This document shows, piece after piece, positions 4,241 to 28,090 of a DNA stretch of 51,597 nt. The notes beneath the pieces were generated by a model. It searched no databases. It was not told the origin of the DNA and saw only the letters and a program-made list of their open reading frames with translations. Position numbers and translations under genes: made by a program. Within the stretch, counting starts at the first letter, position 1. The number at the start of each line of letters is the position of its first letter. Source of the stretch: Pseudomonadales bacterium (GTDB taxonomy: Bacteria > Pseudomonadota > Gammaproteobacteria > Pseudomonadales > Pseudohongiellaceae); assembly GCA_022822865.1 (NCBI GenBank), contig JAJDYJ010000105.1:1-51597 (forward strand), read 5' to 3'.

Positions 4241-7200
4241 ATGCAGTTGGACGATCAGTTCTTCGAAAAACCAATTCTCAACTCGCCTTATAAGAAACCC
4301 TCCCGGCATTGGGAACTGGACGAAGCAGGCCAGCCTACGCAGAAGATCGTAGAGAATCGCAGACGCGCCGACTTCGTAACACCCATCCCCAAGCCCAGGA
4401 AAAGGCGAGGGGCGCCCCAGGAGATCGGTTTGCTGTTAGACGAAGGACTTGGGCTGTCCACGCAGGAACAGAAATACGACCACACCGCGCTCATAACCAG
4501 TGTTCGCGAACAGGTGGACGCCTGGCGTCAACTCCCAAATCCAAACCAGTGGCGCGTAACTCCCGAATCTGCCCGGCTTCTTCAGCACTGGCGAAATCAC
4601 CGGTTCAGCGGAATCCGCCCCTTTTTCTGTCAGGTGGAAGCGGCCGAGACCGCGATCTGGCTGACCGAAGTCGCGCCGCAGGCGGGCAGCAAGGGCAAGG
4701 AAATACTCGAACACCTCTCCAACGCCAACAAAGAGGCAAATCCCGAGTTAATGCGTCTTGCCCTCAAGCTGGCTACCGGGGCGGGAAAGACCACGGTCAT
4801 GGCCATGTTGATCGCCTGGCAGACCGTCAACGCGGTGCGGCATCCGCAAAGCAATAAATTTTCACGCGGATTCCTGATCGTCACGCCGGGCATTACGATC
4901 CGCGACCGTCTTCGGGTGCTTAAGCCCAGCGATCTGGACAGCTACTACCAGCACTGTGAACTCGTGCCGCAGGACATGATGCCGGAAATCAAGCAGGCAA
5001 AGATCGTTATCACGAATTTCCACGCGTTCAAGCCGCGAGAGCGACTTGAACTCTCCAAGGGCGGCCGCTCGTTACTTCAAGGCAGGGGCGAGGAACTGAA
5101 AACCGTCGAAACCGACGGACAGATGTTGCAGCGAGTAATGCCCGAACTCATGGGGCTGAAGAACATCCTTGCGATCAACGACGAGGCCCACCATTGCTAT
5201 AGAGAAAAGCCGGGCGAGGATCTCGAAGAGGACTTGAAGGGTGACGACAGAAAGGAAGCCGAAAAGAACAAGGAAGCAGCCCGGCTCTGGATTTCCGGCC
5301 TGGAAGCGGTGAATCGGAAGCTGAAGCTGTCCCGTGTGATCGATCTGTCGGCTACGCCGTTTTTCCTTAGCGGTTCTGGGTACGCCGAAGGAACCTTGTT
5401 CCCCTGGACCATGAGTGATTTCTCGCTGATGGACGCCATCGAATGCGGAATCGTAAAGCTCCCGAGAGTTCCGGTGTCAGATAATATTCCGGGCGCCGAC
5501 ATGCCGATTTTTCGCAGCCTGTGGCAGCACATCCGCGCGAAAATGCCCAAAAAAGGGCGCGGCAAGGCAAAGGGCCTGGACCCGCGTCAACTTCCGACGC
5601 AGTTGCTTACTGCGCTAGATGCCCTTTACGACCATTACGAGAAAACGTATGAGTACTGGCAGGAGGAAGGCATCAAGGTTCCACCTTGCTTCATCATCGT
5701 ATGCAACAACACGTCTACGTCAAAGCTCGTTTATGACTACATTTCCGGATTCCATCGCGAAAACGACGATGGCACGACAACGCTGGAAAACGGTCGCCTG
5801 CGTTTGTTTAGGAATTTTGACGAACACGGCAATCAATTTTCCCGTCCGCACACGCTATTGATCGATAGTGAACAACTTGAATCAGGTGACGCGCTGGACG
5901 CCAACTTTCGAAAAATGGCTGCCGATGAAATCAAACGCTTCCGCCGCGAGATCGTCGAGCGCACCGGCGACCGCTTGCAAGCCGAAAAACTCACCGATCA
6001 GGATCTACTCCGTGAGGTCATGAACACTGTCGGAAAGCCTGGGCGGCTGGGTGATTCGATTCGTTGCGTCGTATCGGTTTCGATGCTTTCCGAAGGTTGG
6101 GACGCGAACACCGTGACGCATGTTCTCGGCGTGCGCGCTTTCGGTACGCAGCTACTTTGTGAACAAGTCGTCGGGAGGGCGCTACGCCGGCAATCCTACG
6201 AGTTGAACGACGAAGGGCTATTCGATGTTGAATATGCCGACGTGTTGGGTATCCCATTCGACTTCACCGCGAAACCCGTTGTGGCGCCGCCCCAGCGTCC
6301 GCGGGAAACCGTTCAGGTAAAGGCCGTGCGGCCCGAGCGTAACGCGTTGGAGATTCGCTTTCCGCGTGTGGCGGGCTACCGGGTGGAACTGCAAAAAGAG
6401 GAACTTACCGCAAGGTTCAATCCGGATTCGAAACTCCGACTTACGCCGGAAGACGTGGGACCGACCATAACGAGAAATGCGGGAATCATTGGAGAAAATG
6501 TCGAACTTGGAGTGAAAGACCTGAAAAACCGGAGACATTCGGAATTGCTTTTCCATCTCACGAGGCATTTGCTCTATACCAAATGGCTGGACCCCGACGA
6601 AAACCCCAAACTGCACCTGTTCGGCCCCCTGAAGCGCATAACCAGGCAATGGCTGGACGAATGCGTGGTCTGCGAAGGCGGGACATATCCGGGACAACTG
6701 ATGTATCAGGTGCTTGCCGACATGGCGTGCGAGCGCATCAACGCCGCGATATTGCACTCCCACATCGGGGATAAGCCGGTCATGGCGGTGCTCGACCCCT
6801 ATAATCCGGTCGGCTCGACCGCGAACGTCAGTTTCAGCACGAGCAGATTGAATCGCTATGAAACCGATTCGCGCCGATGCCATGTCAACTGGGCCATTCT
6901 CGACAGCGACTGGGAGGCCGAGTTCTGCCGTGTCGCCGAAGCGCATCCGCGCGTGTTGGCGTACGTGAAAAACCATAATATGGGCTTCGAGGTTCCGTAC
7001 CGCTATCGTTTCGAGACTCGAAGATATATTCCCGATTTCATCGTCCTTGTCGACGATGGCCGCGGTGAGGCCGACGCATTGCATCTTGTTGTTGAAATCA
7101 AGGGCTATCGCGGTGAAGACGCCAAGGACAAGAAGAACACGATGGACGCCTACTGGGTTCCGGGAGTAAACAACCATGGCGGCTTCGGCCGCTGGGCCTT

Positions 7201-7294
7201 CGCCGAATTCACCGACGTATTCGAGATGGGTGCGGATTTCGAGTCCGTTATCGCCGCCCGCTTCGATGACCTGACGAGAGGACTGGCCGCATGA
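4241..7294 (+). CDS. type III-like restriction enzyme subunit (SF2 helicase plus PD-(D/E)XK nuclease)
   Basis: The product is 1017 aa, starting at ATG 4241 behind a GGGGAGAG ribosome site. Helicase motifs are clear: Walker A TGAGKTT (residues 179-185), DEAH box NDEAHHCY (D314-H317), motif III-like DLSATPFF, and motif VI-like EQVVGRALRRQSY preceded by SMLSEGWDANTVTHV. The C-terminal domain has a PD-(D/E)XK nuclease site: YIPDF with D932, then VVEIKG with E952 and K954. This is the ATP-dependent cleavage subunit expected to work with the methyltransferase at 8648. It resembles a family I remember under the name BPTD_3080 rather than classical EcoP15I Res; I could not check this. Its stop overlaps the next gene by 4 bases. 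All catalytic motifs are intact, so it is probably active. Confidence 0.88.
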   Translation: MQLDDQFFEKPILNSPYKKPSRHWELDEAGQPTQKIVENRRRADFVTPIPKPRKRRGAPQEIGLLLDEGLGLSTQEQKYDHTALITSVREQVDAWRQLPNPNQWRVTPESARLLQHWRNHRFSGIRPFFCQVEAAETAIWLTEVAPQAGSKGKEILEHLSNANKEANPELMRLALKLATGAGKTTVMAMLIAWQTVNAVRHPQSNKFSRGFLIVTPGITIRDRLRVLKPSDLDSYYQHCELVPQDMMPEIKQAKIVITNFHAFKPRERLELSKGGRSLLQGRGEELKTVETDGQMLQRVMPELMGLKNILAINDEAHHCYREKPGEDLEEDLKGDDRKEAEKNKEAARLWISGLEAVNRKLKLSRVIDLSATPFFLSGSGYAEGTLFPWTMSDFSLMDAIECGIVKLPRVPVSDNIPGADMPIFRSLWQHIRAKMPKKGRGKAKGLDPRQLPTQLLTALDALYDHYEKTYEYWQEEGIKVPPCFIIVCNNTSTSKLVYDYISGFHRENDDGTTTLENGRLRLFRNFDEHGNQFSRPHTLLIDSEQLESGDALDANFRKMAADEIKRFRREIVERTGDRLQAEKLTDQDLLREVMNTVGKPGRLGDSIRCVVSVSMLSEGWDANTVTHVLGVRAFGTQLLCEQVVGRALRRQSYELNDEGLFDVEYADVLGIPFDFTAKPVVAPPQRPRETVQVKAVRPERNALEIRFPRVAGYRVELQKEELTARFNPDSKLRLTPEDVGPTITRNAGIIGENVELGVKDLKNRRHSELLFHLTRHLLYTKWLDPDENPKLHLFGPLKRITRQWLDECVVCEGGTYPGQLMYQVLADMACERINAAILHSHIGDKPVMAVLDPYNPVGSTANVSFSTSRLNRYETDSRRCHVNWAILDSDWEAEFCRVAEAHPRVLAYVKNHNMGFEVPYRYRFETRRYIPDFIVLVDDGRGEADALHLVVEIKGYRGEDAKDKKNTMDAYWVPGVNNHGGFGRWAFAEFTDVFEMGADFESVIAARFDDLTRGLAA

Positions 7295-7776
7295 TGGAAA
7301 CCAGGCTTTATACCGACGCGGAACTCAATACGCTTCGTTCCATGCCGAAAAAAGTAAAGAATCCCGGCGCTCACTGGACTACCAAGCCGAAGGCAAGGCC
7401 AGTTCACCTGCAGCGCAATTTTCAGGTCGTGGATGTCGTGGATGGCAAGGGTGCGCAGAACCGCTTCATGATTTACCAAAGACAAAATCTGGCGGACGAG
7501 AATGACTTTTCCTGCGGCATCGCCTATCTGCCCAAGGGAGCTTCGCAGTTGACGCTGGCTCGCTACAACGGTCCGAGCCATCTGCACGGCGAGATCGTCT
7601 ATAAACCTCATATCCACAGCGCCACGGAAAAAGCGATTTCGCTGGGTAAACGAGCCGAATCCTTTGCGATCGCGACTGACCGGTTCGAGACGCTGGAGGG
7701 CGCGTTGGCGTGTTTGTTGAAGGATTTCGCGGTGACGGGGCTGAACGCGCTGCACGACCAACCGAGGCTGTTCTGA
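7291..7776 (+). CDS. small conserved-looking protein of unknown function in the restriction module
   Basis: The product is 161 aa and I do not recognise it as a named family. ATG 7291 overlaps the nuclease stop (ATGA), so the two are translationally coupled. Visible features are a basic N-terminal third rich in K and P, a beta-rich centre (RNFQVVDVVDG, FMIYQRQN), a conserved-looking CGIAYLP segment, and a histidine cluster (GPSHLHGE, then KPHIHSATEKA). The end, TLEGALACLLKDF, looks helical. The His-rich centre could bind metal, but no catalytic motif can be named. Its position between the nuclease and methyltransferase genes argues for an accessory role in this module, such as regulation, immunity or assembly. 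That is inference from gene order. Confidence 0.7.
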   Translation: MMETRLYTDAELNTLRSMPKKVKNPGAHWTTKPKARPVHLQRNFQVVDVVDGKGAQNRFMIYQRQNLADENDFSCGIAYLPKGASQLTLARYNGPSHLHGEIVYKPHIHSATEKAISLGKRAESFAIATDRFETLEGALACLLKDFAVTGLNALHDQPRLF

Positions 7777-8564
7777 TGACAATCGATTCTCAAGCACTTC
7801 AAAGACTCCTGTGCGAACGTCTTTGCTCGGAAGTGGGAATTGAACGTCGGCCCGATGGTTCCTTGATGTTGCGCACACATTTCCGATTTCCCGATGGCGA
7901 CAGTTTTCCGATTCATCTTTCCGAGACCGCTTCGGGTGGCTTGTGCCTTTCCGATCAGGGCCACACGCTCATGCACATCAGCTATGACCACGATGTCGAT
8001 TCGTTCATGGATGGGACAAGGGGAGCGTTGCTCGAACGCATTGTGCAAGAGGAAGGTTTGGCTTGGAAGGGCGACAGCGGAGCGCTTTGTCTCGATACCT
8101 CGCCGGAGAACCTGTCGCAGTCGGTTTTCAATTTCGGTCAAGCCTTGACCAGAGTGTACGATCTGACGATGCTTTCGCGCTCCAACGTTGGCTCCACGTT
8201 TTATGACGATCTTGCCGACCTGCTGCTGAGTGTGGTTGACGAAGCCAAGATCAAACGCGACTATCAGCCCGAAATCGTAAATGCGCAACATTACCCGGTG
8301 GATTATCGAATTGAGGGCAAGGACGAGATCCCGCTGTTTCTTTACGGTATTCCGAACCGTGACAAAGCGCGGCTTACAACGATCATGTTGTCGCACTTTC
8401 ATCGTAGCGACTTGCGTTTCGAGTCAATTCTCGTATTCGAGAATCAATCCGAAATACCGCGCGTCGACTTGGCGAGATTGTCTGACGTGGGTGGGGACAT
8501 GATTTCCTCCTTGGCCTCCCACGACGATTTCAACCGTAAACTATTGCAGCGTGTGGCGGCTTGA
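7776..8564 (+). CDS. DUF1828/DUF1829-type protein
   Basis: The product is 262 aa from ATG 7776, which overlaps the preceding stop by one base (TGATG). The N-terminal part, with HLSETASGGLCLSDQGHTL near residue 55, matches my memory of DUF1828. The C-terminal half, with YPVDYRIEGKDEIPLFLYGI and a HFHRSDLRFES segment, matches DUF1829. No enzymatic function is established for these domains, to my knowledge. They turn up in mobile and defense contexts, and here the gene is fixed between the restriction subunit and the methyltransferase. The first three genes of the module form one overlapping unit; an 83-bp gap then precedes the methyltransferase. The domain call is from memory; the gene itself is firm. 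Confidence 0.75.
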   Translation: MTIDSQALQRLLCERLCSEVGIERRPDGSLMLRTHFRFPDGDSFPIHLSETASGGLCLSDQGHTLMHISYDHDVDSFMDGTRGALLERIVQEEGLAWKGDSGALCLDTSPENLSQSVFNFGQALTRVYDLTMLSRSNVGSTFYDDLADLLLSVVDEAKIKRDYQPEIVNAQHYPVDYRIEGKDEIPLFLYGIPNRDKARLTTIMLSHFHRSDLRFESILVFENQSEIPRVDLARLSDVGGDMISSLASHDDFNRKLLQRVAA

Positions 8565-8647
8565 ACTGTTGGAAATCACTTGTCGATCTTGAGTAGATTC
8601 TCTATTCGGACGGCGAGTCAGGAGTTATCGGGCGTCAGGATTGGAAA

Positions 8648-11458
8648 ATGGCCAAACGAACAAGAAAACCGAAGCTGAAGTCAGTGGAGTCGCTCACTCA
8701 CGATGAGGCGAGGCGCACAAATATTCCGACCGCGGAATACCAGTCCGTGGTGCAAAAGGAACAGCAGTCCCCAGTAAAAGTCGCATACGAACGCCGCAAT
8801 CGCGATCTGGACCCGCAACTGGTTTGGCGCGGCAAGGACGAGCAGGACTGGTCGGACCTGGTGGTCAATGCGCCTCCGCTTTACATCCAGGAAAAAGTGC
8901 ATCCGAAAGCGCTTGTCGACGATCTGCTGCGCCGCACTCAAGCCGAAGAGCAGGCCGGCGATCCTCAGATCGACTTGTTCGCGGATTTCAATGGTCTGCC
9001 CGAAGACAGCACGAAGACCGAGTTTTACCAACACGACGCCAATTGGACCAACCGCATGATTCTCGGCGACAGTCTGCGGGTAATGGCGTCGCTGGCTGAA
9101 CGCGAAGGACTGCGCGGCAAGGTGCAGTGTATTTACATCGACCCGCCTTATGGCATCAGGTTCAACTCCAACTTCCAATGGTCAACGACTAGCCGCGACG
9201 TTAAGGACGGCAAGGCTGAGCACATTACCCGCGAGCCGGAACAGGTGAAGGCGTTTCGGGATACATGGCGGGATGGGATTCATTCGTATCTGACGTATCT
9301 GCGGGAACGCTTGACCGTTGCGCACGATTTGCTCACTGAAAGTGGGTCTGTATTTGTGCAGATAGGGGATGAGAATGTGCATCGGGTTAGAGCGTTGATG
9401 GATGAGGTTTTTGGGGAACAGAATTTTGTATCCCAAATCTCCTTTTCTAAGACAACCGGATTCTCCAGTAGAAATTTGTCCAATGTCGTTGACCATCTAC
9501 TTTGGTATGCAAAAAAAACCAATGCCGTTAAGTTCCGCCAGTTGAGTAGGCGAAAGCAACAAGGTGAACCCGGGGCTACCGCCTACAAATCTTTGGGAGA
9601 GTTGGTACGAAATGTAGGAGGGTTTGAGCCGACGCGCCTTGCGACGTCTGCTGATCTGACGTCGCAAGGCGCGTCGGCTCATTCACTCCAGCGTTTTGAT
9701 TACCAAAAGAAATCGTTTGTTCCGCCAAAAGGACTTCACTGGAAAGCAACGGTGCCTGGTATGGAGCGAATTGACAAAAGTGGTCGGGTCTTCTTGGTTG
9801 GCAAAACCTTGCGGTATCTTCGTTTTCTTGATGACTTTCCGGTTGTACCTTTTACCAACAACTGGACTGATACCGGTATAGCGGGTTTCACGGCCGACAA
9901 ACTTTATGTTGTGCAGACGCTTCCGAAGGTCATAGAACGATGTATTCTCATGACAACCGACCCCGGCGACCTCGTTCTCGACCCAACCTGCGGTTCCGGT
10001 ACAGCCGCATACGTCGCCGAGCAATGGGGCCGCCGCTGGATAACCATAGACACTTCTCGCGTTGCCCTCGCGTTAGCCCGGTCTCGCGTCATGGGTGCTC
10101 GTTATCCGTTTTTCCTGCTGGCGGACAGCAAGCAGGGACAATTGAAGGAAGCCGAGATCTCACGCAAGGCCCCGTCGGATACGCCCGCTTACAACAACAT
10201 CCGCCAGGGCTTCGTCTATGAGCGCGTCCCCCACATCACACTCAAATCCATCGCTAACAACGCCGAAATCGATGTGATCTGGGAGAAATTCCAGGAAACG
10301 CTGGAACCGTTGCGAAAGAAACTGAATCAAGCACTCGATGAATCCTGGGAAGAATGGGAAATTCCGCGGGAAGCCGCAGACGCTTGGCCCGAGAATGCAA
10401 AAAAGGCGCACGCGCACTGGTGGGAACAGCGCATTGCACGGCAAAAGGAAATCGACGCCTCCATCGCGGCCAAGGCGGATTACGAGTATCTATACGATAA
10501 GCCGTATGAGGACAAGAGCATCGCTCGAGTGGCCGGGCCGTTCACGGTAGAAAGCCTGTCGCCGCATCGCGAACTTGAAGTCGACGAAAATGATGAGTTG
10601 ATCGACAAGGTCGCGGATATGCGTTCCCGGTATGGGGTCGGCGCGGATTTCGCCGAGACGATTCTCGAAAATCTCAAGGTCGCCGGAGTCCAGCAGGCGC
10701 GAAAGGAAGACAAGATCAACTTCATCAGATTGACGCCATGGCCGGGAGAAATGATTTGCGCGGAGGGGCACTATCTCGAAGGCCGTGGAATGAGCGGCGA
10801 AAGCGATTCTGACTCCAGTGTGGATTCCGGCGCCGGTATCGAGAAACGCGCCGGAATTTTCATTGGGCCCGAGTTTGGCAGCGTCGCCCGGCCCGACTTG
10901 GTTGCTGCGGCCAGGGAAGCAGGCGATGCAGACTTCGACGTGCTCATCGCCTGCGCCTTCAATTTCGACGCCCACTCATCCGAATTCGACAAACTGGGCC
11001 GCATCCCCGTACTAAAGGCCCGTATGAACGCCGACTTGCACATGGCCGACGATCTCAAGAACACCGGCAAAGGCAACCTGTTCGTAATTTTCGGCGAGCC
11101 CGACATCGACATCCTCGACGCTGACGACGGTCAGATACAAGTAAAGGTCAACGGAGTGGACGTTTTCCATCCCCAGTCCGGAGAAATCCATTCCGACGGC
11201 CCCGATGGCATCGCCTGCTGGTTCATCGACACAGACTACAATGAGGAGAGCTTCTTCGTCCGCCACGCCTACTTCCTAGGCGCCAACGACCCCTACAAGG
11301 CGCTCAAGACCACATTGAAGGCCGAAATCAATCAGGAAGCCTGGGAAACCTTGCGCAGCGACACCTCGCGCCCGTTCCCCAAGCCATCTACGGGCCGAAT
11401 CGCCGTAAAGGTTATCAACCACCTCGGCGATGAAGTCTTGAAGGTCTATAAGGCGTAG
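8648..11458 (+). CDS. type III-like DNA methyltransferase (Mod), beta-class adenine methylase
   Basis: The product is 936 aa, longer than classical Mod subunits (about 650). Motif IV DPPY starts at D165 (YIDPPYG) and motif I, DPTCGSG, follows at D445; this IV-before-I order defines beta-class N6-adenine methylases. Residues between them, about 240-400, are the expected target-recognition region. They are encoded by visibly AT-richer DNA (about 9360-9960), a common sign of exchange of recognition domains. A perfect 24-bp inverted repeat lies inside it (9625-9681). After the methylase core comes a long C-terminal part with helical (QETLEPLRKKLNQAL) and acidic stretches. It should protect host sites from, and give specificity to, the nuclease at 4241. 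The gene is intact in frame. Confidence 0.9.
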   Translation: MAKRTRKPKLKSVESLTHDEARRTNIPTAEYQSVVQKEQQSPVKVAYERRNRDLDPQLVWRGKDEQDWSDLVVNAPPLYIQEKVHPKALVDDLLRRTQAEEQAGDPQIDLFADFNGLPEDSTKTEFYQHDANWTNRMILGDSLRVMASLAEREGLRGKVQCIYIDPPYGIRFNSNFQWSTTSRDVKDGKAEHITREPEQVKAFRDTWRDGIHSYLTYLRERLTVAHDLLTESGSVFVQIGDENVHRVRALMDEVFGEQNFVSQISFSKTTGFSSRNLSNVVDHLLWYAKKTNAVKFRQLSRRKQQGEPGATAYKSLGELVRNVGGFEPTRLATSADLTSQGASAHSLQRFDYQKKSFVPPKGLHWKATVPGMERIDKSGRVFLVGKTLRYLRFLDDFPVVPFTNNWTDTGIAGFTADKLYVVQTLPKVIERCILMTTDPGDLVLDPTCGSGTAAYVAEQWGRRWITIDTSRVALALARSRVMGARYPFFLLADSKQGQLKEAEISRKAPSDTPAYNNIRQGFVYERVPHITLKSIANNAEIDVIWEKFQETLEPLRKKLNQALDESWEEWEIPREAADAWPENAKKAHAHWWEQRIARQKEIDASIAAKADYEYLYDKPYEDKSIARVAGPFTVESLSPHRELEVDENDELIDKVADMRSRYGVGADFAETILENLKVAGVQQARKEDKINFIRLTPWPGEMICAEGHYLEGRGMSGESDSDSSVDSGAGIEKRAGIFIGPEFGSVARPDLVAAAREAGDADFDVLIACAFNFDAHSSEFDKLGRIPVLKARMNADLHMADDLKNTGKGNLFVIFGEPDIDILDADDGQIQVKVNGVDVFHPQSGEIHSDGPDGIACWFIDTDYNEESFFVRHAYFLGANDPYKALKTTLKAEINQEAWETLRSDTSRPFPKPSTGRIAVKVINHLGDEVLKVYKA
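9625..9681. repeat. perfect 24-bp inverted repeat with 9-base loop inside the mod gene
   Basis: The left arm 9625-9648 and right arm 9658-9681 are exact reverse complements, separated by 9 bases. The whole is 57 bp (19 codons) and keeps the reading frame, encoding residues 326-345 of the methyltransferase. The arms are GC-rich within an AT-richer region. No comparable perfect repeat was noticed elsewhere in coding DNA of the window. Confidence 0.95.
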
Positions 11459-11467
11459 GTGTACGCA

Positions 11468-12559
11468 ATGTCCCAGATTCGCGACATCACCATCGAAGGC
11501 TTTAGGAGCATCAAGTCCGTAGACCTGGAACTGCGCCCGCTCAATATCATGATCGGCGCTAACGGCTCGGGCAAGTCAAATTTATTGATTGCCATAAAGA
11601 TGTTACGGCTAGCTGTGATGAACCGGCGCTTTTTCTTCGATTTCGTTGAGAAATCTGGCGGAGCAAATCGATTATTGCATTTCGGATCGAAGTCTACACC
11701 GGCAATTAAGTTTAAAGTGAAATTTCTGGGCGATACAGCCGAATTCTTCGCAGAGTTGCGCTATGGATCTGATGACAAGTTGTTTCCTCGGCTAACGATG
11801 GATGAAAGAGATGTGCCATCCAGCTATATGGAAAGCCTATATGAAGCTCCTGGTGTTTCGCCAGCCTTACAGTTTATTGGTACCAGGGTAGGGCGTTGGC
11901 GGCACTTTCACTTCAATGACACCAGCGAAAAATCTCCGATGAAACAGGTTTCTGAGATTTTCAATAATCGCGAGATTGACGCCAATGGTTCAAATCTCGC
12001 CTCTGTTCTATACCTGCTGCGCGAAAAGTATAAAACTGAGTACGCAAGTATTCGGCACACAGTACAACAGGTGGCGCCTTTTTTCGAAGATTTCGAGTTA
12101 AAACCTTCAGCTCTGAACGAAGAAATGATTCGGCTTGAATGGAAGCACCGAGAATCAGAAGGATATTTCAACGCTTCTTCTTTATCCGACGGAACCCTAA
12201 GATTCATGGCGCTAGCGACTTTGTTGCTCCACCCTGTTTCACTTCGTCCCCCCGTAATTCTCCTCGACGAGCCCGAACTTGGTTTGCACCCCTATGCGAT
12301 CCACCTTCTAGCGGCCATGCTCAAGCAGGCGTCCGCCGACTCTCAAATAATCGTGGCTACCCAGTCGCCCATATTGCTGGACCATTTCGAACCGGAAGAC
12401 GTACTTGTCGCCGAACGGGTAAACGGCGCCACCGAGTTCAATCGACCGGACGCTGAGCGGTTGAAAGTTTGGCTTGAGGATTACAGCCTGGGTCAGCTAT
12501 GGGAAAAAAATGAACTGGGCGGCCGACCTGGGCCGGAGACTGTACGAAGGTCAAGTTAG
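11468..12559 (+). CDS. OLD/AAA_21-type ABC ATPase
   Basis: The product is 363 aa from ATG 11468; GTG 11459 is an alternative start. RecF/SMC-like ABC ATPase motifs are all present: the N-terminal IRDITIEGFRSIKSVDLEL, Walker A GANGSGKSN, signature LSDGTLRFMAL, Walker B VILLDEPELGLHP, and the switch segment ATQSPILLDHF. No coiled-coil or TOPRIM domain is fused, unlike full-length OLD proteins. The gene follows the methyltransferase stop by a few bases and is followed 2 bases later by a DUF4276 gene, a pairing I recall from many genomes. By analogy with OLD and PARIS-type systems, the ATPase would sense or gate and the partner would act. The central part (about 11600-12200) is clearly AT-richer than the backbone, consistent with transfer. 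Confidence 0.85.
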   Translation: MSQIRDITIEGFRSIKSVDLELRPLNIMIGANGSGKSNLLIAIKMLRLAVMNRRFFFDFVEKSGGANRLLHFGSKSTPAIKFKVKFLGDTAEFFAELRYGSDDKLFPRLTMDERDVPSSYMESLYEAPGVSPALQFIGTRVGRWRHFHFNDTSEKSPMKQVSEIFNNREIDANGSNLASVLYLLREKYKTEYASIRHTVQQVAPFFEDFELKPSALNEEMIRLEWKHRESEGYFNASSLSDGTLRFMALATLLLHPVSLRPPVILLDEPELGLHPYAIHLLAAMLKQASADSQIIVATQSPILLDHFEPEDVLVAERVNGATEFNRPDAERLKVWLEDYSLGQLWEKNELGGRPGPETVRRSS

Positions 12560-12561
12560 GA

Positions 12562-13260
12562 ATGACACGACTGATAGTCCATGTGGAAGGTCAAACCGAG
12601 GAAGAATTCGTTAACCAAGTGTTGGCGCCCCATCTCCGGCCATACGCCATATGGTCGAGAGTCACGCTGTTGGGTAACTCACGACGCCACCGCGGCGGCA
12701 TAACAGGTTGGACAAGTGCAAGAAATGAAATTGTTCGTCACCTCAAACAAGACCGGAATTGTATTGTCACGACCATGGTCGACTTTTATGGACTTCCAGA
12801 CGAAGGCGGAAAAGCCTGGCCAAGCCGTAAAGAGGCATCGGAGCGGCATGCCTCTGCTTTGGAGCGAGCCAGAATCGTCGAAAACGCCCTGTTAGAAGAT
12901 GTTCGCGAGCAGATGGGCGGTGGCTTTGACGGCCGCCGATTTATTCCTTACCTGATGATGCATGAGTTCGAAGCCATGCTGTTTAGCGATTGCAAAAAGT
13001 TCAGCGCGGCCATTGGTCAGCCGAGCCTGGCAACATCGTTCCAGGACATCCGAAATGGATTTTCAACCCCGGAAGAGATCAACGACACTCCAGATGGGGC
13101 GCCGTCAAAGCGAATTGAGCAACTGGTCGGGCCCCGCCGTTACCAGAAACCGTTGAGGGGAGTTCAAGGTGTCAAGGCTATCGGCTTAACTGGAATCCGC
13201 GCTGAATGCCCCAATTTTTCCTGCTGGCTCAGTCGACTGGAAAACTTGTCGGCAAACTGA
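12562..13260 (+). CDS. DUF4276 family protein (possible TOPRIM-type effector)
   Basis: The product is 232 aa and starts 2 bases after the ATPase stop. Family hallmarks are readable: VEGQTEEEFV at the N-terminus, MVDFYGLPDEG, YLMMHEFEAMLFSD, EEINDTPDGAPSKRI, then IGLTGIRAECPNF with WLSRLE at the end. The early acidic Glu in VEGQTE and the Asp in MVDFYG sit where TOPRIM folds carry metal-binding acids, so a nuclease-like activity is plausible. I know of no proven reaction for the family. Tight coupling to the ATPase suggests a two-component complex. It could belong with the restriction module or be an independent defense unit. Confidence 0.82.
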   Translation: MTRLIVHVEGQTEEEFVNQVLAPHLRPYAIWSRVTLLGNSRRHRGGITGWTSARNEIVRHLKQDRNCIVTTMVDFYGLPDEGGKAWPSRKEASERHASALERARIVENALLEDVREQMGGGFDGRRFIPYLMMHEFEAMLFSDCKKFSAAIGQPSLATSFQDIRNGFSTPEEINDTPDGAPSKRIEQLVGPRRYQKPLRGVQGVKAIGLTGIRAECPNFSCWLSRLENLSAN

Positions 13261-13285
13261 TGGATTGAATTGGCGCCTTATAAGA

Positions 13286-15376
13286 ATGAACGTCCTGATC
13301 TCAAATACGTTTACGGCAAGTCTGGCCAGACTGACAAATCAGGAACAAAAAGCGGTCAAGTTCACAGTCTTCGATCTGCAAGTAGACCCGTCCAGGCCGA
13401 GCTTGCGCTATCACAAGCTTGGGTCCGTTCGAGATCCGAAATTTTCTTCGGTCCGAGTTAGCCGCGACATCAGGATCATTGTCCATCGCGACTCTGAAAG
13501 TTTGCTGCTTTGCTATGTGGACCATCACGACAAGGCCTACGAATGGGCAGGCCGGCGAAAACTCGAAACCCATCCTGCAACTGGCGCCGCGCAATTCGTT
13601 GAAATAGCAGAGACGGTGCTACAGGTTGTTGAACCTGAGGTGCCTTACGGGACAGATTTTGAGTGCGAGGAACCTTTACTGTTTGCGGAAGTATCCGATG
13701 AGGAGCTTCTGGCTTATGGAGTGCCGCAAGACTGGATCATCGAAGTCCGCAAGGTTCGGAGCGATGACGAAGCGCTGGATGTCGCTGCACACCTGCCGGA
13801 GGAAGCTTCGGAAGCCCTGCTAAAAATCGCGACCGGAGAGAAACCGCCCATTCCCGCTCGCGTGGCGGAAGACGTTGATCCGTTCGAACACCCGGATGCG
13901 AAACGTCGCTTCCGAGTCGTGGCGAACGAAGATGAACTCGAGCAAGCCTTGGACTATCCGTGGGAGAAGTGGACGATATTTCTCCACCCGGCCCAACGCG
14001 AGATAGTCGAAAAAGACTTCAGCGGCCCCGCCCGGGTGTCGGGTTCGGCGGGCACGGGGAAAACCATCGTTGCGCTCCATAGGGCGGTTTTTCTGGCGCG
14101 AAAGCACGAAGAAGCGCGCGTGTTACTGACAACTTTTTCTGAAACACTCGCGAACTCCCTGCGAATCAAGTTGAGACGGCTCATCAGTAACGAGCCGAAA
14201 CTGGCGGAAAGGCTGGAAGTCCACGCGATAAATGAAATCGGCAGGCGACTGTATGAAGCGAAATTCGGAAAGATCAGTCTGGTCACGCCCGAGGAACTGA
14301 CGGAAGTAATACGGGAAGTCAGCGAGCGCGAGCCTGAACAAGGTTTCGCGCACCGGTTTCTGCTAAGTGAATGGAGAGAAGTGGTCGATGCCTGGCAGTT
14401 GCAAACCTGGGAAGAGTATCGCGACATCAGGAGGCTGGGGCGCAAAACCCGTCTGCCGGAACAACATCGCACGGCGCTGTGGTCGGTCTTTGAAGCTGTC
14501 AAGCGGGAACTGCGGGAACGCGAACTGCTGACAAAGGCGGGCATGTTCAATGCCGTCGCCGAGTCGCTCCGCGAAAGACGCAATCCGCCATTTGAATTCG
14601 CCGTCGTGGACGAGGCCCAGGATATCGATGTTCCACAACTGAAGTTCCTGGCTGCGTTGGGCGGTGACAGGCCCAACAGTCTTTTCTTCGCCGGCGACCT
14701 CGGCCAGCGAATTTTCCAGCAGCCGTTCTCATGGAAGTCGCTTGGGGTCGAAATCAGAGGCCGTTCCCAAACTCTTCGAACCAACTACCGGACCTCGCAC
14801 CAGATCAGGATGCAAACGGACCGATTGCTTGGCCCCAAGGTTGCCGATGTTGACGGCAACGTGGAGAGCCGCACGGGCACGGTCTCGGTGTTCAATGGTC
14901 CCCGACCGGAAATCTGTGAGCTTGAGTCGAAGGAGGAAGAGCGCGACTTGGTTGGCCTTTGGATTTCGGACCGATTGGAAGAGGGAATCTCGCCGCACGA
15001 GATCGGCGTCTTTGCGCGGTCAACAACCGAACTGGAGCGAGCGAAAGAAGCCGTTCGGCAAAGCGGCGCGGAATTCAATGTACTCGACGAATCGGTAGAG
15101 ACTTCTCCCGGCAAAATCTCGATAAGCACCATGCATCTGGCCAAGGGGCTTGAATTTCGAGCCGTGGCGGTAATGGCCTGTGACGACGAAGTGATTCCGC
15201 TACAGGACCGAATCGAGAACGTGGCCGACGACGCCGACCTCGAAGAGGTCTACAACACCGAACGCCATTTGCTTTACGTCGCCTGCACGCGGGCAAGAGA
15301 TCGCCTGCTGGTAACCGGCATCGACCCCGTATCCGAATTTCTGGACGACTTGTCACTAACCCCACTCGCAATATAA
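13286..15376 (+). CDS. UvrD-like SF1 helicase with N-terminal RelE/ParE-like domain
   Basis: The product is 696 aa from ATG 13286; the frame opens 21 bases earlier with a poor TTG. Residues about 1-90 look like a RelE/YafQ-type fold: LRYHKLGSVRDPKFSSVRV, then DIRIIVHRDS, and a CYVDHHDKAYEWA end. A roughly 140-residue linker follows. The helicase then shows Walker A GSAGTGKT (253-260), DEAQD Walker B (VDEAQD, D442-E443), FAGDLGQRI, LRTNYRTSHQ, the motif V region ISTMHLAKGLEFR, and motif VI LLYVACTRARDRLL. All core motifs are intact. I recall proteins of this architecture annotated simply as UvrD helicases. The toxin-like domain could contact ribosomes or DNA, or be a structural relic. The gene follows DUF4276 within 25 bases. 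Confidence 0.87.
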   Translation: MNVLISNTFTASLARLTNQEQKAVKFTVFDLQVDPSRPSLRYHKLGSVRDPKFSSVRVSRDIRIIVHRDSESLLLCYVDHHDKAYEWAGRRKLETHPATGAAQFVEIAETVLQVVEPEVPYGTDFECEEPLLFAEVSDEELLAYGVPQDWIIEVRKVRSDDEALDVAAHLPEEASEALLKIATGEKPPIPARVAEDVDPFEHPDAKRRFRVVANEDELEQALDYPWEKWTIFLHPAQREIVEKDFSGPARVSGSAGTGKTIVALHRAVFLARKHEEARVLLTTFSETLANSLRIKLRRLISNEPKLAERLEVHAINEIGRRLYEAKFGKISLVTPEELTEVIREVSEREPEQGFAHRFLLSEWREVVDAWQLQTWEEYRDIRRLGRKTRLPEQHRTALWSVFEAVKRELRERELLTKAGMFNAVAESLRERRNPPFEFAVVDEAQDIDVPQLKFLAALGGDRPNSLFFAGDLGQRIFQQPFSWKSLGVEIRGRSQTLRTNYRTSHQIRMQTDRLLGPKVADVDGNVESRTGTVSVFNGPRPEICELESKEEERDLVGLWISDRLEEGISPHEIGVFARSTTELERAKEAVRQSGAEFNVLDESVETSPGKISISTMHLAKGLEFRAVAVMACDDEVIPLQDRIENVADDADLEEVYNTERHLLYVACTRARDRLLVTGIDPVSEFLDDLSLTPLAI

Positions 15377-27965: not shown

Positions 27966-28090
27966 CCCCCACCAAAACCGCTGCGCGATTTTGACTCCCC
28001 CGGAGGGGGAGTATCGCGTTTGGTTCCGGCGCTGCGCTTTTTCACTCCCCCTTTGGGGGAGTCGAATCCGCGCAGCGGATTCGGTGGGGG
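27966..28090. repeat. composite inverted-repeat element (MITE/REP-like) between rnpB and mraZ
   Basis: Arms of 36 bases (27966-28001 and 28055-28090) are imperfect reverse complements. Both contain CCGCTGCGCG and run between CCCCCACC and GACTCCCCC. Each arm's inner end is also half of its own 8-bp hairpin with a 3-base loop (27994-28012 and 28044-28062, ACTCCCCC / GGGGGAGT). The nested symmetry is typical of small non-autonomous mobile or REP-type elements. No coding potential is seen. It occupies most of the 382-bp rnpB-mraZ spacer. Confidence 0.75.

What the first reader, a model, noticed from the sequence alone, without database searches (positions are those of the whole stretch)
9625..9681. 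Perfect 24-bp inverted repeat in the methyltransferase target-recognition region
Two exact 24-base reverse-complement arms flank a 9-base loop, in frame, between motifs IV and I. A perfect match of this length in coding DNA is very unlikely by chance. The encoded residues (DLTSQGAS within the right half) resemble, from memory, a conserved stretch of such Mod proteins, so one arm may be ancestral and the other copied from it by template switching. Other options are a recombination site for swapping recognition domains, an inverting switch, or a structure that limits mod translation.
Basis: partly seen in the sequence, partly recalled or inferred. Interest (0 to 1): 0.7.

Follow-up and report, generated by a model that had tools for sequence, protein, structure and literature searches.

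The report
Five-base flip switch in methyltransferase gene
A bacterial DNA-methylating enzyme's gene contains a perfect DNA hairpin whose five-base tip occurs in both orientations among related genes, so it likely flips back and forth and would swap two amino acids in the part of the enzyme predicted to read DNA.

Summary
The 24-bp inverted repeat (9625-9648 / 9658-9681) is real, single-copy in its genome and in frame in a Type III mod gene. Five mod loci, four of them from different phyla, share the hairpin. Its 37-nt core is identical apart from one silent base in the window and the central 5 nt, which are CTGAT in two loci and the exact reverse complement ATCAG in three. The flip turns Ala-Asp into Asp-Gln. 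Of 273 homologous proteins, 117 read xD, 154 read DQ and 2 neither. Three protein pairs identical outside the hairpin sit in opposite states; 12 of 25 disjoint pairs at >=90% identity differ. The arms covary at amino-acid level. Only one coding of RLATS is complementary to LTSQG: four loci use it exactly, the window with one silent change. Best reading: a coding hairpin kept perfect by template switching, whose loop flips recurrently and toggles two residues in the target-recognition domain. Flipping within one culture and any effect on DNA specificity are inferred, not shown. Loop inversion by template switching is known from yeast coding DNA; our literature searches found no account of this long-conserved two-state switch in a methyltransferase.

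The parts
8648..11458 (+). mod gene, 936-aa Type III DNA methyltransferase (P0001)
9625..9648 (+). left arm of the perfect inverted repeat (encodes E-P-T-R-L-A-T and the first two bases of S)
9649..9657 (+). 9-nt loop TGCTGATCT; T9649 and T9657 do not pair, G9650-C9656 can
9651..9655 (+). 5-nt invertible core CTGAT (state A, Ala-Asp, residues 335-336); its reverse complement ATCAG gives Asp-Gln (state B)
   Evidence: both orientations in related loci; flip of this core gives exactly the residues of P0002
9658..9681 (+). right arm (encodes T-S-Q-G-A-S-A), conserved LTSQGAS stretch
9610..9696 (+). imperfect outward extension of the hairpin, 39-nt arms 85% complementary
9140..9151 (+). catalytic motif IV DPPY, upstream border of the recognition region
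   Evidence: residues 165-168
9980..10003 (+). motif I DPTCGSGT, downstream border of the recognition region
   Evidence: residues 445-452
4241..7294 (+). res gene (ResIII helicase; endonuclease domain below its cut-off), the likely restriction partner
   Evidence: PF04851 E 1e-9; an equivalent gene lies in the mod cluster of L191, L193 and L194

Best explanation
The mod gene carries a perfect in-frame DNA hairpin whose 5-nt loop core is found in both orientations in related genes, and it likely inverts again and again by replication template switching, which would toggle two residues (Ala-Asp or Asp-Gln) in the predicted DNA-recognition domain of a Type III methyltransferase. Shown: the hairpin, its presence in five mod loci, the exact loop inversion between loci at DNA level, the mix of the two states in 271 proteins, opposite states in proteins identical elsewhere, and amino-acid covariation of the arms. 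Inferred: that the inversion goes by template switching (a nascent strand copies an arm, hops to the other strand, copies the loop backwards, and returns), that the same process keeps the arms complementary, that the left arm arose as a copy of the ancestral LTSQG arm, and that the two states differ in DNA target recognition.
For: DNA: window and L154 have CTGAT, L018, L025 and L181 have ATCAG, between the same arms; perfect arms run 16 (L154), 22 (L018), 24 (L181) and 35 nt (L025). Outer arms differ between lineages yet pair within each. Of 3456 codings of RLATS only CGCCTTGCGACGTCAG has a reverse complement that encodes LTSQG; 4 of 5 loci have it exactly, the window with one silent change (T for A at 9649). 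Only GCT GAT of 8 Ala-Asp codon pairs inverts to DQ, and only GAT CAG of 4 inverts to AD; none of 275 proteins shows any of the other residue pairs that silent changes would give. Proteins: 117 state A, 154 state B, 2 other among the 273 of 275 that fit the motif. Disjoint close pairs: 5 of 10 at >=95% and 12 of 25 at >=90% identity differ in state. P0001/P0002, P0046/P0056 and P0238/P0260 are identical outside the hairpin and opposite in state. At least 47 changes of state on a tree with 158 labelled proteins. Coupled variants as the inversion predicts: Ser-Asp only with Leu (7 of 117 in state A) and Met at the fourth position only with Asp-Gln (8 of 154). Arm covariation: possible perfect run 22.8 nt against 18.3 (sd 0.24) for swapped arms, 0 of 2000 shuffles, n=110 after thinning. 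Among 162 Mod segments scanned (a few loci counted twice) only these five loci had a perfect inverted repeat over 12 nt. Spacer inversion in perfect coding repeats with spacers of 2-5 bp is reported in yeast (PMC8604942, section on spacer inversions read). Position: predicted model with block means of 85, 95 and 84 pLDDT for residues 321-350; a low-confidence profile alignment, counted by hand, puts the pair at EcoP15I residues 319-320, the start of the distal lobe whose loops track the major groove (PMC4490356, passages).
Against: No raw reads, no clonal culture and no DNA of P0002 were seen, so a flip inside one population is not shown directly. The window's own loop has an unpaired T-T beside the core, so its hairpin is not ideal. 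Some relatives keep the peptide or the DQ residues without any inverted repeat (L221, L197), so the repeat is not essential. An apparent asymmetry at the fourth position (p 0.003, 234 of 276 proteins) vanished in the fuller count (p 0.19, 273 of 275) because four SADI proteins appear in state A. The outer-arm test on the second protein set alone, thinned to 9 proteins, was not significant (155 of 2000). One of 36 control columns (Ile/Leu) changes as often for its minor state (0.675) as the loop (0.644; median 0.37). Nothing here shows that the two states recognise different DNA.
Confidence: 0.66

Rival explanations
1. Neutral hot spot: the loop flips by template switching, but Ala-Asp and Asp-Gln are equivalent and the flip has no function; the hairpin persists only because the process repairs itself.
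For: Yeast coding repeats flip between two residues without any adaptive claim (PMC8604942). State is almost unlinked to the tree (47 changes against 52.6, sd 3.4, for shuffled labels; 35 of 500 shuffles as low), as expected for a saturated neutral flip.
Against: Loop residues are DQ (154), AD (103), SD, TD, GD or AQ and never GQ, DR, DP, DL, VD or AG in 273 proteins, although most synonymous codon pairs of one state would invert to those. This suggests that both read-outs are constrained; slow change at the loop itself is not excluded. The hairpin has lasted across phyla in a recognition domain.
Confidence: 0.33
2. Assembly artefact: the hairpin is real but assemblers place its loop in a random orientation, which mimics a polymorphism.
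For: Near 50:50 states even between identical proteins is what random placement would give. P0002 comes from a contig of similar length (51,425) to the window and, like it, bears no outside source; it could be a second assembly of similar reads.
Against: Proteins whose longest listed contig exceeds 1 Mb, probably long-read assemblies (inference), are 22 state A and 22 state B; in the 33 of them that are single-member clusters 13 A and 20 B (lists copied by hand). A graph assembler confuses the loop only if the arm is about as long as its word (general knowledge); arms are 16-35 nt. The window's 9-nt loop inverted as a whole would give SDQQ, but P0002 reads SDQL.
Confidence: 0.07
3. Programmed inversion by a site-specific recombinase that binds the arms, as in classical invertons.
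For: A long perfect palindrome with an asymmetric core looks like a recombinase site; core conserved across phyla.
Against: No site-specific recombinase among the neighbours scanned with Pfam in the window, L191, L192, L193 and L194 (not every ORF was scanned and several have no family); the arms vary outside the core; a 5-nt segment is too short for the usual two-site inversion (general knowledge).
Confidence: 0.09
4. RNA-level function: the mRNA hairpin limits translation or is cut by RNase III, and the loop orientation is irrelevant.
For: Very stable predicted RNA stem: -69.4 kcal/mol, z -11.7 in the window; z -13.3 in L025 and -10.7 in L018. Arm covariation also fits selection on RNA pairing.
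Against: Does not explain two alternating loops of fixed residues; perfect stem length varies from 16 to 35 bp; no Rfam match at gathering scores in 8000-12000.
Confidence: 0.1
5. A mobile palindromic element inserted in frame (as Rickettsia palindromic elements or REP sequences).
For: Palindrome inside a coding gene, present in distant bacteria.
Against: Single copy in the window's genome; in the L018 and L025 genomes the exact 15-base arm piece also occurs only as the two arms (where L025's genome has one more hit with a mismatch); always at the same place in the same gene family.
Confidence: 0.02

Closest known systems
Template-switch arm homogenisation and spacer inversion in coding inverted repeats (Abraham and Hazkani-Covo 2021, PMC8604942; abstract and one section read)
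   Same: Perfect in-frame repeat, short spacer inverted as a unit, recurrent flips between two amino-acid forms (e.g. SPO75), arms made identical
   Different: Yeast strains of one species, arms of 10-16 bp in its table of inversions; here arms of 16-35 bp, conserved across phyla in one gene family, with both states kept and codon choice fitting both
Loop inversion and compensatory change by template switching in RNA genes (Monttinen and Loytynoja 2022, PMC8794818; abstract and passages seen)
   Same: Loop inversion and concerted change of both stem halves
   Different: RNA genes; no protein read-out
Coding palindromes of Nematomorpha mitochondria (PMC6649704; abstract seen)
   Same: Perfect inverted repeats in which both arms encode conserved protein
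   Different: Genes of one animal group; no two-state loop described in the abstract
Phase-variable Type III mod and inverting Type I hsdS genes, phasevarions (review PMC11868660, passages seen; otherwise recalled)
   Same: Reversible DNA change in a methyltransferase recognition or expression unit
   Different: Those use simple repeats, allele exchange or recombinase inversions of large segments (recalled); no such repeat tract lies in this mod gene
EcoP15I Mod (PDB 4zcf)
   Same: Beta-class Type III Mod fold, recognition domain between motifs IV and I
   Different: About 20% identity over the aligned part; this protein is longer (936 against 644 residues); no such hairpin motif mentioned in the passages read

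Membership tests
Type III restriction-modification Mod subunit | N6/N4 methyltransferase domain with beta-class motif order (IV, recognition domain, I) | tested here: met
   PF01555; DPPY 165-168 before DPTCGSGT 445-452
Type III restriction-modification Mod subunit | Profile and fold of known Type III Mod | tested here: met
Type III restriction-modification Mod subunit | Res helicase-nuclease gene in the same cluster | tested here: met
   ResIII in window, L191, L193, L194, 4 of 4 loci with both flanks of mod; in L192 mod runs off the contig end and no Res is seen
Type III restriction-modification Mod subunit | Methylates one strand of an asymmetric site | not testable with these tools
   needs a methylome
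Template-switch spacer inversion in a coding inverted repeat | Perfect arms over 9 bp with a short spacer | tested here: met
   arms 16-35 nt, loop 5 nt (9 nt in the window)
Template-switch spacer inversion in a coding inverted repeat | Spacer exactly inverted between relatives that share the arms | tested here: met
   CTGAT in 2 and ATCAG in 3 of 5 loci; protein pairs identical outside the hairpin
Template-switch spacer inversion in a coding inverted repeat | Concerted change of both arms | tested here: met
   covariation 0 of 2000 shuffles in sets of 89, 47 and 110 thinned proteins
Template-switch spacer inversion in a coding inverted repeat | Switching seen during replication | not testable with these tools
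   no reads or cultures
Recombinase-driven inverton | Two orientations of one segment between inverted repeats | tested here: met
Recombinase-driven inverton | Dedicated recombinase gene nearby | tested here: inconclusive
   none among the neighbours scanned in window, L191, L192, L193, L194; some ORFs unscanned or without a family; an IS605 OrfB in L194 only; a distant enzyme is not excluded
Simple-repeat phase-variable mod | Long short-unit repeat tract in the gene or its promoter | tested here: not met
   only a 2.1-copy, 11-nt repeat at 10056-10079 within 8400-11600
Mobile palindromic element | Several dispersed copies in the genome | tested here: not met
   one locus at up to 3 mismatches

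The most novel reading that the evidence does not exclude
This is the smallest natural invertible genetic switch: a recombinase-free, 5-bp inversion held in a self-repairing coding palindrome, kept across at least four phyla because both orientations encode a working Type III Mod with different DNA target specificity, so one flip re-writes the methylome and the restriction barrier of the cell.
Probability: 0.33. Interest if true: 0.92.

Novelty: new variant of a known kind. Interest (0 to 1): 0.78.

Why it matters
Template switching is usually seen as a source of rare scars. Here it appears to be built into a gene as a lasting two-state device: arms, loop and codon choice fit each other so that either orientation gives a sensible protein, in bacteria of several phyla. 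If the two states read different DNA, bacteria could change their methylation pattern and phage barrier by turning five bases, with no recombinase and no repeat tract, and scans built for longer invertible segments would probably miss it. Even if neutral, the site is a natural reporter for template-switch rates in bacteria.

Tried and rejected
Rejected: domain-swapping site and mobile palindrome (single copy). Simple-repeat phase variation. Known RNA family (none at gathering scores). Classical inverton: judged unlikely, not excluded.

Led nowhere: the recognition-domain peptide found nothing in phages and 19 plasmid records at under 60% identity; two DNA patterns found nothing in viral contigs; L025 DNA found nothing in E. 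coli genomes. The first structure (18 rows, pLDDT 55) was dropped for the deeper one (131 rows). Among 97 genomes near the window's own, 17 (itself included) had any match to the protein; besides the window itself, in the genus one gene had another recognition region and others were fragments or distant. Sampling for further carriers was poor. Genomes searched with the recognition-domain query, and carriers among the loci that were fetched: own phylum 397, the window alone; family of L018 299, L018 alone; 295 genomes, one new (L154; 20 of 30 matches fetched); family of L025 150, L025 alone; 77 genomes, one new (L181); 331 and 326 genomes, none among the fetched loci (20 and 20 listed with a locus, of 32 and 23 matches).

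Results against me: the fourth-position asymmetry (p 0.003 with a filter that dropped 42 of 276 proteins) became p 0.19 with 273 of 275. Among 36 balanced control columns one Ile/Leu column had a higher ratio of changes to minor state (0.675) than the loop (0.644); the median was 0.37. Set 2 alone thinned to 9 proteins was not significant for the outer arms. Rows dropped: P0159 (the protein of P0161, from L025) from the counts; P0212 (extra codon, SADQL) and P0224 (TSHG) do not fit the motif; two 'AQ' proteins left out. The covariation test used only the 234 proteins of the alignment (104 of set 2) before thinning. The 162 segments count a few loci twice and leave out loci fetched later. Proteins come from the 120 best hits of each of three searches, 8000 scored in each, out of a database clustered at 90%, so they are the closest, not a random sample.

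Full report
The observation. None of 100 shuffles of the window held the arm, and the 3.2-Mb genome has it only here. Pairing resumes inside the loop (G9650-C9656) behind one T-T mismatch, leaving a 5-nt core, CTGAT, at 9651-9655.

Homologues. The first protein search showed that the residues of both arms are conserved (TRLATS..LTSQGAS), and that the two residues between them come in two forms. The window reads S-A-D-L. P0002 is identical in all other 934 residues but reads S-D-Q-L. Inverting the 5-nt core of the window gives exactly that: TCT GCT GAT CTG becomes TCT GAT CAG CTG (codon logic). Inverting the whole 9-nt loop would give SDQQ instead.

DNA of relatives. Only a few carriers could be fetched as DNA: L018 (Giesbergeria MAG), L025 (Spirosoma fluviale), L154 (a genome of the same phylum as a Nitrospira locus) and L181 (a genome of the same phylum as a Nitrospinia locus). 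With the window that makes five. All carry CGCCTTGCGACGTCAG - 5 nt - CTGACGTCGCAAGGCG, the window with one silent change (T for A at 9649). The 5 nt are CTGAT in the window and L154, and ATCAG in L018, L025 and L181. Perfect arms measure 16 nt in L154, 22 in L018, 24 in L181, 35 in L025 and 24 (with the 9-nt loop) in the window. Among 162 Mod segments of the loci then held (a few loci counted twice), only these five loci had a perfect repeat over 12 nt; one unrelated segment had 12.

Why the DNA is fixed. In this frame the third base of each codon in one arm pairs with the middle base of a codon in the other. Of 3456 codings of RLATS exactly one, CGCCTTGCGACGTCAG, has a reverse complement that encodes LTSQG, and that is what four of the five loci have, the window with one silent change. 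The peptide alone does not force it. L221 encodes LATSQSLTSQG and L197 encodes RLAVLDQVTSQG with other codons and no repeat; L197 uses GAC CAA for Asp-Gln, where the hairpin genes use GAT CAG. Within the loop, only GCT GAT among 8 Ala-Asp codon pairs inverts to Asp-Gln, and only GAT CAG among 4 inverts to Ala-Asp. In the five loci, then, the silent positions of each state are those that keep the other state's residues.

Protein statistics. Three searches listed 120 proteins each. With P0160 (L018) and without P0159 (the protein of P0161) this gives 275 proteins, of which 273 fit the motif: 117 in state A (103 Ala-Asp, 7 Ser-Asp, 6 Thr-Asp, 1 Gly-Asp), 154 in state B (Asp-Gln), 2 Ala-Gln. No other residue pair occurs. 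Met as fourth residue occurs 8 times, with Asp-Gln only; Ser-Asp occurs 7 times, with Leu only. The inversion predicts this pairing (TCA TCT GAT CTG to TCA GAT CAG ATG). Other changes at the fourth residue do not sort as cleanly: four state-A proteins have Ile.

Flip rate. Of disjoint pairs of closest proteins, 5 of 10 at 95% identity or more, 12 of 25 at 90% or more and 21 of 55 at 85% or more differ in state. Three pairs identical over 885-906 aligned residues outside the hairpin are in opposite states (P0001/P0002, P0046/P0056, P0238/P0260); a fourth identical pair shares its state (P0139/P0147). On a quick tree without the hairpin columns the states need at least 47 changes among 158 labelled proteins of the first set; shuffled labels need 52.6 (sd 3.4), and 35 of 500 shuffles need 47 or fewer. 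The state is thus nearly unlinked to descent.

Arm covariation. For each protein I asked how long a perfect stem its two arm peptides could form with any codons. In 110 proteins thinned at 80% identity (from 234) the mean is 22.8 nt; with arms swapped between proteins it is 18.3 (sd 0.24), and no shuffle of 2000 reached the real value. The second set alone (n=47) gives 21.2 against 18.9, again 0 of 2000; the first set alone (n=89) gives 23.7 against 17.8, 0 of 2000. The outer codons alone (7-11) covary too in the full set (0 of 2000), though not in the 9-protein subset of set 2 (155 of 2000). Both arms have therefore evolved together.

Is the flip an assembly error? Random loop placement would also give equal states. 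Against it: 44 proteins whose longest listed contig exceeds 1 Mb are 22 A and 22 B; since that contig may belong to another member of a cluster, I also counted the 33 single-member clusters, 13 A and 20 B (lists copied by hand). Such contigs are probably long-read assemblies (inference). Arms of 16-35 nt are shorter than the words that end common assemblies (general knowledge), and P0002 is not what a whole-loop error would give. Reads were not available.

Mechanism. The pattern of homogenised arms, a loop inverted as a unit and recurrent two-state flips is that described for template switching in yeast coding repeats (PMC8604942, abstract and the spacer-inversion section read) and for loops of RNA genes (PMC8794818, abstract and passages). 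No site-specific recombinase was among the neighbours scanned, though not every ORF was. I therefore commit to template switching, as inference. LTSQ and close variants are common in Mod proteins with other recognition regions that lack the left arm and the repeat, so the right arm is likely ancestral and the left arm its copy.

Function. That the two states read different DNA is a prediction from position and from codon constraint. A neutral hot spot remains the strongest rival. An RNA role is possible, since the predicted stem is very stable.

Novelty. Searches of the open-licence library for the peptides (none), for template switching with hairpins, methyltransferases or spacer inversion, for invertons, for flip-flop hairpin loops and for type III or phase-variable mod with inversion listed no description of this switch. 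Listings and starts of abstracts were seen, not whole papers, and subscription journals are not held. The process is of a known kind; its long conservation as a two-state coding device in a methyltransferase recognition domain is the new part.

Noticed in passing
window 27966-28090: 47-nt inverted repeat, 85% complementary, 31-nt spacer, with runs of CCCCC and GGGGG; longer than the mod hairpin but imperfect.
   Followed up: no
window 11459-15376: Downstream of mod: an AAA ATPase and DUF4276 pair that match PADLOC HEC-01A/HEC-01B, then a UvrD helicase with GajB-like matches; the locus looks like a defence island.
   Followed up: partly
window 7291-8564: Between res and mod lie a 161-aa ORF without a Pfam family and a DUF1828 protein that matches PADLOC candidate PDC-M24B.
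   Followed up: no
P0212 (protein, 822 aa): Reads RLATSADQLTSQG, one codon longer; with the usual codons this would be a perfect palindrome holding both states (inferred from residues, DNA not seen).
   Followed up: no
L197, L221: Relatives that keep DQ or LATS..LTSQG but have lost, or never had, the inverted repeat; natural controls with other codons.
   Followed up: partly
P0013 and P0118: Two Mod proteins listed with longest contigs of the same length (4,910,959), one in state B and one in state A; perhaps paralogues in one genome.
   Followed up: no
L194 10412-11701: IS605 OrfB (TnpB-like) gene just downstream of the Giesbergeria mod gene.
   Followed up: no
L057 4756: 23-nt perfect inverted repeat GTAGGAGCGGGCTTGCCCGCGAT with 12-nt loop, REP-like (the name is recalled).
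   Followed up: no
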